Shown here: piece after piece, positions 32,480 through 40,257 of the stretch
Numbering within the stretch: the first letter of the stretch is position 1
Layout of the letters: the number at the start of each line of letters is the position of its first letter
Assembly: GCA_947497175.1 (NCBI GenBank)
Contig: CANMFM010000002.1
Coordinates: 1 to 64,000 of the forward strand
Reading direction: 5' to 3'
Origin: an uncultured Aquimarina sp.
GTDB lineage: Bacteria; Bacteroidota; Bacteroidia; Flavobacteriales; Flavobacteriaceae
DNA: 64,000 bases
Program-made: the position numbers and the translations under genes
The notes under the pieces: model-generated
Told to the model about the DNA's origin: nothing
The model's database searches: none
Seen by the model: only the letters and a program-made list of their open reading frames with translations

Positions 32480-35160
<2,681 letters not shown>

Positions 35161-35274
35161 GTCAAAACCATAGACTGTAAGACCTTTAATTATTATAATT
35201 TTGCTATATTGTGTACAGGAATATATCACACTAAATTATTTCAGGAAGGCATACTCAGAATTAGTAGAGGTTAA

Positions 35275-35987
35275 TTGCTTGAGTATAAAAAATGGTTAAT
35301 GAATGGAGAAAAACTACTAAAGCTTGTTATTTTCTTTTTAATCGTATCACAGGTACTTGGTTTTGTTTTTAAAAATCTCCTGTTATATAACTATGCCAAT
35401 ACAATACTTCCTGCTTTAATTATTTTGCTTTATTTTATAAGTACCAAAAGAATAAAATTATTTGACATAGTTGTTCTTTTGGCTCTTTTGATTGGTCAGT
35501 GGGTATTTTTTTTTGTGGATTGGGATATTTTAATAAAGTCACAAATAGTAAGGCGAATTACAATTTATATCTTGGTGTTTTATTTTTTGTATGACAACCA
35601 TAAGTCATTTAAGTATAATAGAAGAGATGTATTTACATTAGTATTAGGTAGTTCTTTGTATACTGTAATTTTCATTATGGCTTATCTATCATTAAGAGAA
35701 CAAATGGGAGCGTTGCATGGGATAGGTTTTCTCAACTTACTGTTGATTTATATTTTACTGATTGTAGGCGCAATGCATTACATTAACATACGATCAGAAA
35801 AATCCCTTTGGTTTTTGTATCAATGCTAAACGTTGCGTTCAGCGATTTTATGTTGTTGTTAGATAGATTTTATTTGCACTCATATGAATTGGAGGTCTTA
35901 GTATTGATATGTGAACCTTTGGCGATTGTTTTTTTTGGTAAACTATATGGCGACAAAATCTCTAAAACTCAAATCAGAAGAATTTGA
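35275..35987 (+). pseudogene. YhhN-like membrane protein, copy 2, broken by a single frameshift
   Basis: The first frame (TTG at 35275, or ATG at 35299) ends at a stop at 35829 just after RSEKSLWFLYQC. In the -1 frame the reading continues directly with VSMLNVAFSDFMLLLDRFY and ends at TGA 35985-35987. This aligns with SLFFLIAILNFIVSDACFA of copy 1 without a gap. One base appears to be missing at the T5G run near 35815-35819. The restored product would be about 237 residues. The restored stop overlaps the TTG start of copy 3 by 4 bases, supporting the longer reading. Mutation, sequencing error or frameshifting cannot be separated here. Confidence 0.75.
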
Positions 35988-36709
35988 AGGGTTTTAATAA
36001 TAAAAACTATGATTTGAAAATAGCAAGATTTACATACCACTTATTTTATACGACAGGTTTTCTTACTATGTTGGCAGCTATTTTTGCTCAGGACATACTT
36101 ATCTATTTTAAGCCTTTTGTTATCATTACGTTAGGGTTGTTGTATTTGGCTAATACAGAAAATAAAAATTATGTTGTTTTAACGAGTTTATTCTTGCTCT
36201 TAATTTGTGAAATACTTTTTTTACAAGATTATTTGGGGAATTTCGAGATCTTACATGTTTTACTCTCGATATATTATGCTCTTAATATTGGCTTACTTTG
36301 GAAGAGTTTACAGTTAATTAAGATAAAGCTTAAAAAGATTTTTACACTACAATTGCTTATATCGATGGCTCTAATTATTTATGTATTATATTCTGTAGCG
36401 CAATTAATTCTGCCCAGGGTAGATGATCATCATGTTGTGCTGATCATGCTGATTTTTTTCTTTTCATTATTCATAGGAGTATGCTACTATATTTATTTAA
36501 ATAGTAAAACAATCATTAGTTATTCATTAATGGTGGCGGCGTCATGTTTTTTGATTGTAAATATTTTAGCGGCTTTAAACCGGTTATATGTTTCTATCGA
36601 AGTGTTCTCGATCATAAACAACCTTTTACAGATTTTTGGGCAGTTTTTTCTTGTGAAATTTTTTATTGATCAACATAAATTACTTCCTAATGAAGAGGAT
36701 TATTTTTAA
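35984..36709 (+). CDS. YhhN/TMEM86-like membrane protein, copy 3
   Basis: A 241-residue protein with about eight membrane helices, alignable with copy 1: IYFKPFVIITLGLLY for the first motif, ICEILFLQD where copy 1 has GD, VNILAALNRLYVSIEVFSI where copy 1 has SDACFALNRFYI, and FGQFFLVKFFI at the end. Two of three motif acids are changed, so catalysis by the usual residues is doubtful. The start is TTG at 35984, overlapping the restored stop of copy 2, or TTG at 36014. No ATG lies before residue 30. Confidence 0.6.
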   Translation: MKGFNNKNYDLKIARFTYHLFYTTGFLTMLAAIFAQDILIYFKPFVIITLGLLYLANTENKNYVVLTSLFLLLICEILFLQDYLGNFEILHVLLSIYYALNIGLLWKSLQLIKIKLKKIFTLQLLISMALIIYVLYSVAQLILPRVDDHHVVLIMLIFFFSLFIGVCYYIYLNSKTIISYSLMVAASCFLIVNILAALNRLYVSIEVFSIINNLLQIFGQFFLVKFFIDQHKLLPNEEDYF

Positions 36710-36749
36710 AAGTTAATAGTAGATTTATAGTGTTTAATACTTCGAGTTT

Positions 36750-37454
36750 TTGAAAAAAATAAATTTTACATATTTAATATTCTATTGCGCTTTTGTAATG
36801 GTAATTTATGTAGCTGTTTTTTTGGATAAAGCGTTGTTGATCTACATAAAACCAATAGCGCCTCTTTCTTTAATTTTGTTGTACGTAAAATCGGTTAAAA
36901 AAATTGATCCTTTATTTCCTTTAAGTATGGTTGTAATATCAATTACTGATATTTTTAATTATATCGATTTTATAAAATTTTTTGATCTCATTGCTTTGTT
37001 GATATCCCTATTTTATATTCTTTGCCTTTTTTTATTAAAAGATTTTATTTCTAAAGAAGATGTGAAGCTTAGTAAATTAGTATCTCCACCGGTTATAGTT
37101 AGCATACTTTTTATTACCTATCTGATCTATTCTATTGTTGAGATTGCAATGCCCGAAGTTGGGAACTCTCTAGGATCTATTGTTTTGATTGTTACAAGCT
37201 TACTTTCATTTGTTGCAGTCAGTTTTTTCATCTACGTAGCAGATAGATATGATAAATCAATTTTTTTATTTATTTCGGCTTGTTGTACATTATTTGTAGA
37301 TACAATTTTAGCTATAAACGAGTTGTACTATTATACCAGGGTTTTTACAGTACTTATTAATATTGCAGAAATAGCTGGCCTTTATTTTTTTACCATATTT
37401 TTAGTACGCACAAAGCTAGTCGATGTAGAAACGTTTAAAGAAAACTATTTCTAG
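36750..37454 (+). CDS. YhhN/TMEM86-like membrane protein, copy 4
   Basis: A 234-residue multi-span protein related to the three genes before it: IYIKPIAPLSLILLYVKS, SITDIFNYIDF, and VDTILAINELYYYTRVFTV near the end. It keeps acidic residues at both motif positions (TD and VD) but is the most diverged copy. The TTG at 36750 is the only start that keeps the first membrane helix intact; the first in-frame ATG comes at residue 17. It is separated from the helicase gene by 79 bases. Confidence 0.58.
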   Translation: MKKINFTYLIFYCAFVMVIYVAVFLDKALLIYIKPIAPLSLILLYVKSVKKIDPLFPLSMVVISITDIFNYIDFIKFFDLIALLISLFYILCLFLLKDFISKEDVKLSKLVSPPVIVSILFITYLIYSIVEIAMPEVGNSLGSIVLIVTSLLSFVAVSFFIYVADRYDKSIFLFISACCTLFVDTILAINELYYYTRVFTVLINIAEIAGLYFFTIFLVRTKLVDVETFKENYF

Positions 37455-37533
37455 GGTGAAGTAATGATGATCAATGATCTTGTTTCTTAGCAATGCTTTA
37501 TATTCGCACTAATTTAAATAATCAGATACTCTA

Positions 37534-40257
37534 TTGGAAATTTTATCATTGATCAACTACTTTACTGACTGCTACAGGGCAGACAATAGAGAGTTTAGTA
37601 TCGAGAATTTTTTTTCTTCTAAGTTTGAAAATCAAACGCTTCAAAATCTGGAGGAAGAACTAATTAACGGTAGGTTTAAACATCAATACATACCTGATAA
37701 GCCCGCTGAAGCTATATCTAAAAACCTTCAGTTGTATAAAAGAGATAAACAGTTGTTTTATTGCTCACTTTTTTTGGTCGGCAAACGAAAGCTGTTTAAT
37801 AAAAAAACACAAATAATTTGTGCACCCTTATTTTTTTATCCTTCAGAAATAGTACATCAACTACATGGAGAATATCTTATAAAATTACCGATAGAAGAGC
37901 GGCAAGTTAATTATGGTTTTCTAAAAACGTTGGAGTTTAATACTTCATTTGAGAAATTTCAAGAAGAATTTACGATTTTACTTCATGAAGAAATAGTAGA
38001 TTATCCTTTCATCACCAGAATGCAGCGAATATTTGAAAAACATGTTTCCAATGTTTCTTTTTCCGATGATTTTGCAATGTTTCCTAAGTTGTTAAAGCCA
38101 TCACTGGTAAAAAAATATAGCAAAGAAGGCGGGGATGAAAATTTTGATCGTTTTAAGCTGCTACCTACTTCAGGAGTATTGGTGTCAAGTAGGGCGAGCA
38201 ACATTCAAAATGTGGTTAATGAATTAGAGCAATTATCAAAAGTCTCAGATTTTTCATCTGCAATTCATTCTTATCTCGATAATTATGATCAGCCCAAAAC
38301 AGAAGCATATGTGCCTTTAATCAAGCCGTTTATTCTTAATAAAGCGCAAGAAAAAAGTATTGCGTCTGCAAATGAGATGGGAAAATCTGTGATTATTGGT
38401 CCTCCAGGCACGGGTAAATCATATACAGTTGCTGCGATTGCCATAGATTGTCTTAGTCAAGGAAAGAGTGTTCTTATTGCTACGAGAACCGATGAGGCAT
38501 TACAGGTGATTTCAGATAAACTAAACTCTTTTTCTGTGGGGCGTTATAGAATGAAAGCAGGCGGATCCAGATACAAAATGTCCTTAGTGTCTAGCCTCGA
38601 AAAATTTTTATATCGATTTGATCAATTACCTTTCAGGAGCGAAATTGATAAAAAATTCAATCACTTAGAATTTCTACAAAAGAGGTTGAAGGAGATCGAG
38701 CTTGAGTTTTCAGAAATTGATAAAAAAAGCGAAGCTTTGACTCGTACGATTCTAAAAGAATCAGGTTTTATACGAAGTGTACAGCTTAAATGGTTAGCCT
38801 TATTTAAACAATGGGAACAGCAAGAGTGGGCGTTGATTGATGAATATATGTCTTCTCTTCATAATAGTATTCAAAAGTCAAATAAAAAATTGATGGGGCA
38901 ACTATTGGGTAAAATTAGAAATCGGGTGCTGCATCATTGGGAAGAGCTTCAAAACCTTGTAAATTCTATACGTAATAATGATCTGTCGATGAAAGCCGAT
39001 GAGTTACAGTCGGTTAATTTTAATATCATACTTGATGCCTTACCTATTTGGTTGGTAAAGATTGATCAGGCGGCAGAAATACTTCCTTTAAAAAAAGAAA
39101 TGTTTGATTTGCTGCTTGTTGATGAAGCTACACAATGTGATATGGCTGGGGTTTTACCCCTGATGCAAAGAGCAAAAAAACTTGTGATCACCGGAGATCC
39201 AAAACAATTAAGACATGTTAGTTTTTTATCCAAACAACAAATGTTTTCAATAGCAAGAAAACATAATATTTCCTGGAACGAAAAGTATAATTATAGAAAT
39301 AAAAGCCTTCTTGATTTTGTGTTAGAGCATACCACATCTTCAAAGCAAGTAACGCTTCTAAATGAGCATTATAGATCGTTACCAGATATTATTCGCTTTA
39401 GCAATCTAGAGTTTTACGAAAACTCATTGTTAGTCATGAATGATCTTCCAAAATATAAAAACCAAAAATCTGTTTTTATTCATGAAGTAAAAGGCAAAAG
39501 AAATGATAAAGGAATTAATGAGGAAGAAGGAGCGCTAATTCTTAAGTATATAAAGAATCTTATTTTGCAAGAAGAAGGTGTTCAGAAAAAACAAGCAACT
39601 AGTTTAGGAGTAATTTCTCCATTTAAAGATCAAGTTATATATTTGGGTAAATTGATTCGAAAAGAAATTTCTTTGAATCAGCTTCGCAAACATAATATCC
39701 GCCTTGGTACTCCATATTCTTTTCAGGGAGATGAAAGAGATATTGTTCTTATTTCGATGGCTATAGATAATGATTCGCATCATAGCGCGTTACATTATCT
39801 AAATAGAACAGATGTTTTTAATGTTATGATAACCCGAGCCAGAAACGTACAGGAAGTCTTTTTGTCTGCGACTATTAAAAACCTAAAGCTCGATTCACTA
39901 TTGCGTAAATATTTAGAAAAATCTTTAGATAATTATAAGCCCGTCACTCAAAAAAATCAATTAGATATATTTACAAAACAAGTATGTGATTTTTTGGATG
40001 GTATTGATTTAGGGATTAATTACTATGTAGGATATCAGCTATCTGGATTAATAATAGATATTTTAATAGAAAAAAACGGACACTATCTGGGAATCGATTT
40101 AATTGGATATCCAGGTGATTTTGAAGCTTCATTTTCTATAGAACGTTATAAGGTTTTATACCGTGTTGGAATTCAGGTTATTCCTCTAAGTTATGTTACC
40201 TGGTATTTTGATGAAAAAATAAAAGAACGAATGTTAGAGCGGTTGGATACTTTATGA
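37534..40257 (+). CDS. SF1 (DNA2/NAM7-like) helicase with C-terminal nuclease-like region
   Basis: A 907-residue protein. Residues 1-270 are an unrecognised N-terminal part. The helicase core has Walker A GPPGTGKS (289-296), a helical insert with coiled-coil character (about 360-500), the Walker B-type VDEATQCD (529-536), GDPKQLRH (554-561), PYSFQGDERD (727-736) and the arginine finger segment NVMITRAR (763-770). The last 90 residues resemble Vsr or MTES_1575-type endonuclease folds: a strand with Asp842 (IIDILIE), GIDLIGYPGDF with Asp855, then a helix and VIPLSYVTWYF. The start is TTG at 37534. Such fusions often belong to defence systems, but no defence partner is adjacent. Confidence 0.8.
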   Translation: MEILSLINYFTDCYRADNREFSIENFFSSKFENQTLQNLEEELINGRFKHQYIPDKPAEAISKNLQLYKRDKQLFYCSLFLVGKRKLFNKKTQIICAPLFFYPSEIVHQLHGEYLIKLPIEERQVNYGFLKTLEFNTSFEKFQEEFTILLHEEIVDYPFITRMQRIFEKHVSNVSFSDDFAMFPKLLKPSLVKKYSKEGGDENFDRFKLLPTSGVLVSSRASNIQNVVNELEQLSKVSDFSSAIHSYLDNYDQPKTEAYVPLIKPFILNKAQEKSIASANEMGKSVIIGPPGTGKSYTVAAIAIDCLSQGKSVLIATRTDEALQVISDKLNSFSVGRYRMKAGGSRYKMSLVSSLEKFLYRFDQLPFRSEIDKKFNHLEFLQKRLKEIELEFSEIDKKSEALTRTILKESGFIRSVQLKWLALFKQWEQQEWALIDEYMSSLHNSIQKSNKKLMGQLLGKIRNRVLHHWEELQNLVNSIRNNDLSMKADELQSVNFNIILDALPIWLVKIDQAAEILPLKKEMFDLLLVDEATQCDMAGVLPLMQRAKKLVITGDPKQLRHVSFLSKQQMFSIARKHNISWNEKYNYRNKSLLDFVLEHTTSSKQVTLLNEHYRSLPDIIRFSNLEFYENSLLVMNDLPKYKNQKSVFIHEVKGKRNDKGINEEEGALILKYIKNLILQEEGVQKKQATSLGVISPFKDQVIYLGKLIRKEISLNQLRKHNIRLGTPYSFQGDERDIVLISMAIDNDSHHSALHYLNRTDVFNVMITRARNVQEVFLSATIKNLKLDSLLRKYLEKSLDNYKPVTQKNQLDIFTKQVCDFLDGIDLGINYYVGYQLSGLIIDILIEKNGHYLGIDLIGYPGDFEASFSIERYKVLYRVGIQVIPLSYVTWYFDEKIKERMLERLDTL

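What the first reader, a model, noticed from the sequence alone, without database searches (positions are those of the whole stretch)
37534..40257. SF1 helicase with a C-terminal nuclease-like region, a defence-like architecture
The helicase motifs are complete (289-296, 529-536, 554-561, 727-736, 763-770) and the last 90 residues show the strand-acid, strand-acid pattern of Vsr or MTES_1575-like nucleases, with Asp842 and Asp855. Such fusions are frequent among predicted antiviral proteins, but this one sits beside a membrane array and not in a known defence cassette. A combined membrane-plus-nuclease system is possible.
Basis: partly seen in the sequence, partly recalled or inferred. Interest (0 to 1): 0.5.

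Follow-up and report, generated by a model that had tools for sequence, protein, structure and literature searches.

The report
Stand-alone helicase fused to nuclease-like domain
A single bacterial gene encodes a motor protein of the UPF1 kind with a DNA-repair-nuclease-like tail; it comes and goes between housekeeping genes, is not linked to its membrane-protein neighbours, and may be a one-gene phage defence, which is untested.

Summary
ORF 37534-40257 (907 aa) is an intact UPF1-like SF1 helicase; residues 805-907 fold as a Vsr/PD-(D/E)XK domain (pLDDT 82; structural Z 11.5 to NGO0050, 8.5 to Vsr). It is a compact relative of giant DUF4011-helicase-MTES_1575 proteins. In 40 of 40 aligned members Asp842, Asp855, Gly858, Gly861, Arg877 and Trp890 are invariant, but the third acid is Ile/Val and no His is conserved. 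The fold is well supported, catalysis is not. The domain is under purifying selection.

The 'membrane-plus-nuclease system' is not supported: YhhN genes lie at 45 of 48 genus loci, the helicase is intact in 7 and a relic in 4, and one intact copy has no YhhN beside it. The closest relative has lost it. Elsewhere its neighbours vary; no defence island was recognised at the 18 loci scanned. Best reading: a solitary, acquired, repeatedly lost nucleic-acid-processing gene, perhaps single-gene defence (about 0.5). New variant of a known kind.

The parts
37534..40257 (+). Helicase / Vsr-like fusion gene, 907 aa
37534..38328 (+). N-terminal region, residues 1-265; residues 73-176 (37750-38061) resemble the end of DUF4011 and the stretch after it in giant relatives; Cys13, Gly83 (39 of 40 each) and Pro98 (40 of 40)
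   Evidence: hhalign prob 94.4, E 8.5e-8; unrelated-profile control E 0.49; DUF4011 confirmed in 8 giant relatives; AlphaFold model of low confidence, pLDDT 65; conservation
38329..39873 (+). UPF1-like SF1 helicase core, residues 266-780, with a poorly conserved insert at about 350-500
38398..38421 (+). Motif I (Walker A), residues 289-296
   Evidence: G289, G292, G294, K295 in 40 of 40
39118..39141 (+). Motif II (Walker B), residues 529-536
   Evidence: D530, E531 in 40 of 40
39193..39216 (+). Motif III, residues 554-561
   Evidence: D555, Q558 in 40 of 40
39712..39741 (+). Motif V, residues 727-736
   Evidence: G732 in 40 of 40, R735 in 39 of 40
39820..39843 (+). Motif VI, residues 763-770
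   Evidence: T767 in 39 of 40, R768 in 40 of 40
39946..40254 (+). Vsr-like (PD-(D/E)XK fold) domain, residues 805-907; Asp842 = 40057-40059, Asp855 = 40096-40098, Arg877 = 40162-40164, Trp890 = 40201-40203
   Evidence: dN/dS 0.035-0.142 in 11 pairs

Best explanation
A solitary gene for a compact DUF4011-like / UPF1-type SF1 helicase / Vsr-like protein, most simply acquired once at this spot in an ancestor of a sub-clade of the host genus, inherited vertically and lost several times. Most likely mechanism: the helicase core moves along single-stranded nucleic acid and feeds it to the C-terminal Vsr-like domain, which cuts (or at least grips) it with metal bound by Asp842 and Asp855, with Arg877 standing in for a missing active-site residue; the N-terminal domain recognises a feature of invading nucleic acid. 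The likeliest benefit is defence against phages or other mobile DNA, carried by one gene without fixed partners. Shown: domains, fold prediction, invariant residues, selection, presence and loss pattern, absence of a fixed partner at the loci viewed. Inferred: direction of movement, cleavage, the role of Arg877, recognition, and defence.
For: Helicase core and its relatives. PADLOC matches, in a library that holds only defence proteins, are best to PDC-S37, MkoC, MkoA and Hhe; in NCBIfam the two best are ProA (137.5 bits) and Hhe (106.9), then TIGR00376, IGHMBP2 family (91.9), and PLuB (90.6), all far below their cut-offs. Vsr fold and homology to MTES_1575. Both acids invariant in 40 of 40 and the domain under purifying selection, so the tail does something. 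Patchy spread: 25 of 66 genomes of the genus, own included, but 5 of 394, 6 of 394 and 3 of 394 other genomes in order, class and phylum samples, plus four full-length relatives in records named Thermoanaerobaculia, Colwellia, Hahella and Verrucomicrobiales. Repeated loss: relics in 4 genomes and a deletion in the closest relative. No fixed partner seen.
Against: No defence island recognised: of 100 neighbour proteins scanned (18 loci), 9 matches to PADLOC at E 1e-10 or better, spread over 6 models; no control set was run. In the clade of the window the gene tree broadly follows the tree of the flanking genes, so recent transfer is not seen there. The third acid is gone and the His is not conserved, so the tail may not cut. 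The nearest solved helicases are RNA/DNA surveillance proteins. No phage or expression data.
Confidence: 0.5

Rival explanations
1. Accessory nucleic-acid repair or RNA-surveillance protein of the UPF1/SEN1/SMUBP-2 kind, kept in some lineages for housekeeping reasons (stalled forks, R-loops, RNA turnover), with no role against phages.
For: Closest solved relatives are eukaryotic RNA/DNA surveillance helicases; housekeeping-looking neighbours; vertical descent at a fixed site within the genus. A DUF4011 gene is a flanking core gene found in every P. aeruginosa isolate (PMC10250203, passages read), so DUF4011 proteins need not be defence genes.
Against: Patchy presence, decay and loss in close relatives, and at least three chromosomal settings within one genus, which a general repair gene would not need.
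Confidence: 0.3
2. The Vsr-like tail is a dead nuclease kept as an RNA or DNA gripping domain, as proposed for the FASTKD4 RAP domain; the protein is a helicase with a binding tail. (Not exclusive of the other readings.)
For: Third acid replaced by Ile/Val in 40 of 40 and no conserved His in the stretch after Asp855; the model matches FASTKD4 RAP at Z 8.0 and T. gondii mitoribosomal chains at Z 9.4-9.5. FASTKD4 keeps Asp523 but has Asn at the place of Vsr His69, and mutating Asp523 did not alter MT-ND3 stability (PMC11879112, passages read). Some giant MTES_1575 relatives have also lost site residues (L065, L073).
Against: Both acids are invariant across very different bacteria, which a pure binding domain would not obviously require.
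Confidence: 0.35
3. Combined membrane-plus-nuclease system with the YhhN-like genes.
For: Adjacency and same strand in the window and a YhhN-like gene at 6 of 7 loci with an intact helicase.
Against: YhhN-like genes are present at 39 of 41 genus loci without an intact helicase; G011 has the helicase with no YhhN between ligA and it; relatives viewed outside the genus have other neighbours.
Confidence: 0.02

Closest known systems
Giant DUF4011 - SF1 helicase - MTES_1575 REase proteins (Vsr-type REase domain described in PMC3710099, passages read; NCBIfam lists Hhe, NF042953, as a DUF4011 anti-phage protein)
   Same: Same order of parts. Eight giant relatives (open frames 1529-2234 aa) carry DUF4011 and MTES_1575 above the curated cut-offs; the window family matches their profiles at E 8.5e-8 (N-terminal part) and 2.4e-9 (tail).
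   Different: About 905 aa; no DUF3320 among the families matched in 18 members; the N-terminal match covers only about the last 60 residues of DUF4011 and about 40 beyond; altered active site; NF042953 score 106.9 against a cut-off of 2000.
MTES_1575 helicase cousins of similar length (L028, L079-L083; ORFs of 838-1013 aa)
   Same: Helicase core plus MTES_1575 tail: 5 of 6 over the Pfam cut-off, L079 at 37.7 against 38.2. Best PADLOC model is MkoC for 3 and PDC-S37 for 2 of the 5 scanned. L079 and L080 begin with a similar short N-terminal motif (by eye).
   Different: The 4 tails viewed (L028, L079, L080, L081) keep D ... E-x-D-G and a His; the window family has D ... D-L-[IV]-G-x-x-G.
CoCoNuT type III-B CnuH (PMC11090510, passages read)
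   Same: UPF1-like SF1 helicase fused directly to a Vsr-like effector, predicted there to act on RNA.
   Different: CnuH is encoded with McrB/McrC homologues; none was recognised beside this family.
PDC-S37 and Mokosh MkoA / MkoC (PADLOC models)
   Same: 143, 104 and 131 bits.
   Different: Best stretches lie in the helicase region (and, for PDC-S37, run into the tail) of longer models.
Vsr, I-Bth0305I and NGO0050
   Same: Fold: Z 8.5, 10.3 and 11.5 over 87-90 residues.
   Different: 14-18% identity; the helicase fusion; no conserved His.

Membership tests
UPF1-like SF1 helicases | Helicase motifs I, II, III, V, VI | tested here: met
UPF1-like SF1 helicases | 5'-3' movement on single-stranded nucleic acid | not testable with these tools
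   needs biochemistry
Vsr / PD-(D/E)XK fold | alpha-beta-beta-beta-alpha-beta core | tested here: met
   predicted model
MTES_1575 REase (PF18741) | Curated score cut-off | tested here: not met
   19 bits against 38.2 for the window piece
MTES_1575 REase (PF18741) | First two acids of the site (D ... E) | tested here: met
   D842 and D855 (Asp for Glu) in 40 of 40, aligned
MTES_1575 REase (PF18741) | Third acid of E-x-D-G (12 of 13 relatives viewed have the whole D ... E-x-D set) and His (11 of 13; by eye) | tested here: not met
   Ile/Val at 857 in 40 of 40; no conserved His
DUF4011 (PF13195) | Curated score cut-off / match over the domain | tested here: inconclusive
   no match in the window protein at E <= 1; 2 of 18 members at E <= 0.01, best 8.6e-4; profile match to the end of the domain and beyond
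Hhe (NF042953) | Family score cut-off; model of 1797 positions | tested here: not met
   106.9 bits against 2000; 907 aa
PDC-S37 (PADLOC) | Match over most of the 1550-position model | tested here: inconclusive
   two stretches pass, only the best is shown: 928-1274 of 1550
Mokosh | Match over most of MkoA or MkoC | tested here: inconclusive
   MkoA 578-1068 of 1112; MkoC two stretches, best 669-969 of 1136
CoCoNuT type III-B | McrB/McrC homologues in the locus | tested here: not met
   six near neighbours in the window have no McrB/C match; no McrB/C model among the 6 matched by 100 neighbour proteins elsewhere
Anti-phage defence protein | Protects cells from phage | not testable with these tools
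   needs plating tests

The most novel reading that the evidence does not exclude
A stand-alone antiviral protein of one gene whose Vsr-fold nuclease has a rebuilt active site: Asp842 and Asp855 kept, the E-x-D-G...H part replaced by the invariant D-L-[IV]-G-x-x-G with Arg877 and Trp890, so that its chemistry or substrate (for example RNA fed by the UPF1-type motor) differs from Vsr-like nucleases described so far. A bolder version, also not excluded, is that the gene promotes its own spread into gaps between genes, as free-standing homing endonuclease genes do (such genes: PMC3943268, passages read).
Probability: 0.25. Interest if true: 0.55.

Novelty: new variant of a known kind. Interest (0 to 1): 0.36.

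Why it matters
If it is a one-gene defence, it would be a small version of the giant DUF4011-helicase-MTES_1575 proteins, convenient for structure and biochemistry, and its setting among ordinary genes means that searches based on defence islands would miss it. The fixed change of the Vsr-type active site in all 40 members offers a direct test of whether a nuclease fold without its third acid and His still cuts.

Tried and rejected
Link with the YhhN array: rejected by the 48-locus survey.

Defence hotspot at ligA-DUF6913: apart from a 207-208 aa gene in G047 and G008, the only other insertion noted there (L115, G038) holds two proteins with Por_Secre_tail domains (which I read as type IX secretion cargo) and no PADLOC match at E <= 0.1.

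Three-gene AAA+ / helicase / 2OG-oxygenase system in the 13 genomes of clade B1: in G042 and G041 the AAA+ and oxygenase genes overlap by 1 and 4 bases without the helicase, and in G034 they overlap as called, so the helicase is an insert there (or was cleanly lost) and not a needed partner. My script printed a wrong gap for G042 and G041 because it picked another ORF; the figures given are from its ORF list.

Mutual exclusion of clade A (7) and clade B (18) copies among 66 genomes: chance alone gives P = 0.09, without allowing for shared ancestry, so no claim is made.

N-terminal fold: the model is poor (pLDDT 65) and gave no useful match (best Foldseek E 0.51). The DUF4011 likeness rests on hhalign, with Pfam in 2 of 18 whole proteins at E <= 0.01 and 1 of 5 N-terminal pieces at 0.061.

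PDB sequence searches with the C-terminal profiles gave nothing with 5 rows and, with 15 rows, 13 matches at E <= 10 that I take as spurious (best: designed TIM barrels, E 2.2e-4). A viral-contig scan gave two matches: one giant helicase relative and one short stretch. Phage records gave 5 partial matches. One plasmid record holds a near full-length member (Persicobacter, 31% identity, 99% covered), not followed. No paper naming this family turned up in the ten paper searches, which looked for related names and not for this family as such; that is not proof that none exists.

Full report
Observation. The ORF at 37534-40257 is real, open and 907 aa long. Pfam finds AAA_11 and AAA_12, and the closest solved structures are SEN1, UPF1, SMUBP-2 and a '5'-3' RNA helicase-like protein'. 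The C-terminal claim was checked in four ways. (a) Pfam MTES_1575: 5 of 5 pieces at E <= 1, best 1.2e-5; the window's own piece 1.5e-3, 19 bits, below the 38.2 cut-off. (b) Profile-profile comparison with 13 MTES_1575-type domains: E 2.4e-9, probability 96; comparisons with unrelated profiles gave E 0.49 and 0.68. (c) An AlphaFold model from five family members, no canonical MTES_1575 sequence among them: pLDDT 82, pTM 0.69, with helices, three strands, a helix, a strand and helices. (d) Structural comparison: Foldseek's best match is I-Bth0305I at E 2e-3, probability 1.0, with none at 1e-3 or better; VIA gives Z 11.5 for NGO0050, 10.3 for I-Bth0305I and 8.5 for Vsr. Asp842 and Asp855 fall in neighbouring strands of the model.

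Active site. Of the 13 MTES_1575-type relatives laid out, 12 carry D ... E-x-D-G and 11 also the His (counted by eye; L065 has lost the first two acids and the His, L073 the His). In the window family the stretch is D842 ... D855-L-[IV]-G-x-x-G, with six fewer residues where the cousins carry the His. Over 40 intact members, residues 842, 855, 856, 858, 861, 877 and 890 are the same in all 40, and 857 is Ile (24) or Val (16); no His is conserved in the following stretch. The two metal-binding acids are thus kept and the other canonical residues are not. Nei-Gojobori dN/dS of the domain is 0.035-0.142 in 11 pairs, against 0.022-0.089 for the helicase core in the 9 pairs and 0.054-0.114 for the N-terminal part in the 10 pairs that could be computed (synonymous change is near saturation in several pairs). 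The domain is constrained, but whether it cuts cannot be decided here. FASTKD4 is a precedent for a Vsr-like fold that keeps the Asp, has Asn for His69, and is thought to bind RNA without cutting (PMC11879112, passages read).

N-terminal region. Residues 73-176 match a stretch upstream of the helicase in nine giant relatives (hhalign E 8.5e-8, probability 94). In eight of these, all that were tested, Pfam DUF4011 is present above its cut-off; judged on L064, the match covers about the last 60 residues of DUF4011 and about 40 beyond it. The model of residues 1-269 is poor. The same eight carry MTES_1575 above its cut-off. The whole protein thus has the parts in the same order as those giants, at about half their length. 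The MTES_1575 domain was described in giant SF-I helicase proteins in PMC3710099 (passages read).

Distribution. Full-length members, own genome included: 26 of 140 in the first set of relatives and 25 of 66 in the genus. Leaving out the own genome: 5 of 394 in the order sample, 6 of 394 in the class sample (one cut by a contig end) and 3 of 394 in the phylum sample. G295 is counted in both class and phylum, and G133 in both and the order sample. Forty of the copies were aligned: 26, 4, 3 and 7.

The locus. Names such as ligA, dapA and recN are my reading of the translations; YhhN, DUF6913 and the potassium channel are from Pfam. In 48 genus loci examined between ligA and DUF6913 (38, and the window), an intact helicase is present in 7, tblastn relics in 4 (G061, G036, G044, G046), and nothing by tblastn in 37. 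Four of the 48 pieces do not reach ligA, so they are read less fully. YhhN-like genes lie at 45 of 48; the exceptions are G011 (which has the helicase), G038 and G013. In the closest relative, G017, the DNA alignment stops at window position 37460 and resumes at 40156, within the last 102 bases of the helicase: the gene seems to have been deleted there. The tree of clade-A helicases broadly agrees, by eye, with the tree of ligA plus DUF6913 (the node that groups the window with G024 has support 0.42). One gain at this spot, vertical descent and repeated loss is the simplest account; no formal test of it was run.

Other settings. In clade B1 (13 genomes) the gene lies between an AAA+ gene and a 2OG-Fe oxygenase gene; in the five junctions inspected it starts 9-30 bases after the first and overlaps the second by 4 bases. 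In G042 and G041 the two genes overlap without it, and in G034 they overlap as called. Twenty further loci, from this genus and elsewhere, show varied neighbours. Some neighbours recur among close relatives, for example a helix-turn-helix gene in L038 and L044 and an ABM-type gene in L045 and a similar one in L138, but by eye none recurs across lineages, and several look plainly housekeeping (gltX- and glyS-like, SDR, ribosomal protein L9-like; my reading). Of 118 nearest neighbours, 100, from 18 loci, were scanned against PADLOC: 9 matches at E <= 1e-10, to HTH_VI (3), mad3 (2, best 1.3e-25), ZorB, mad8, AriA and LmuA (1 each). I did not trace each one, and no control set was run. Neighbours of clade B1 and of the other clade-A loci were not scanned against PADLOC.

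Function. The likeness to defence-related helicases lies mainly in the helicase core, which many proteins share, so it is weak evidence for defence. Patchy presence and frequent loss fit defence or another conditional benefit. Housekeeping-looking settings and the lack of a recognised defence island argue against a standard island gene. I put single-gene defence at about one half and an accessory repair or RNA-surveillance role at about 0.3. Whether the tail cuts is a separate question, at roughly 0.65 for yes.

Verdict. It is a compact variant of a known kind with an unusual, fixed change of the active site.

Noticed in passing
window 34474-37454: Tandem array of four YhhN-like membrane protein genes between ligA and the helicase. 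Only the first reaches the Pfam YhhN model; they are diverged paralogues of about 25-41% identity in the parts that align, and their number at this locus varies from 0 to 4 across the genus.
   Followed up: partly
window 35275-35994: The second YhhN-like ORF is 184 aa, while most of its relatives are 231-250 aa; homology continues in the same frame to about 35994, so it seems cut by an early stop.
   Followed up: partly
L046:6826-12364 and 12 similar loci; versions without helicase in L127, L128, L129: A helicase of the same family lies between an AAA+ gene and a 2OG-Fe oxygenase gene that overlap where it is absent; the five junctions inspected keep a 4-base overlap with the oxygenase gene.
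   Followed up: partly
L115:3942-8440: In G038 the ligA-DUF6913 interval holds two proteins with Por_Secre_tail domains in place of the YhhN genes.
   Followed up: partly
L134:9730-10125: A short gene that looks TerB-like by eye lies 4 bases upstream of the helicase in G786.
   Followed up: no
C-terminal model, residues 812-903: Structural match Z 5.7 to residues 1123-1272 of solved Upx (9wuf), a weak link to a protein that I recall as an anti-phage system.
   Followed up: no
L036:6989-7615, L037:10334-10957: In G047 and G008 a 207-208 aa gene (weak SPOR match in L036) lies on the other strand between the helicase and DUF6913.
   Followed up: no
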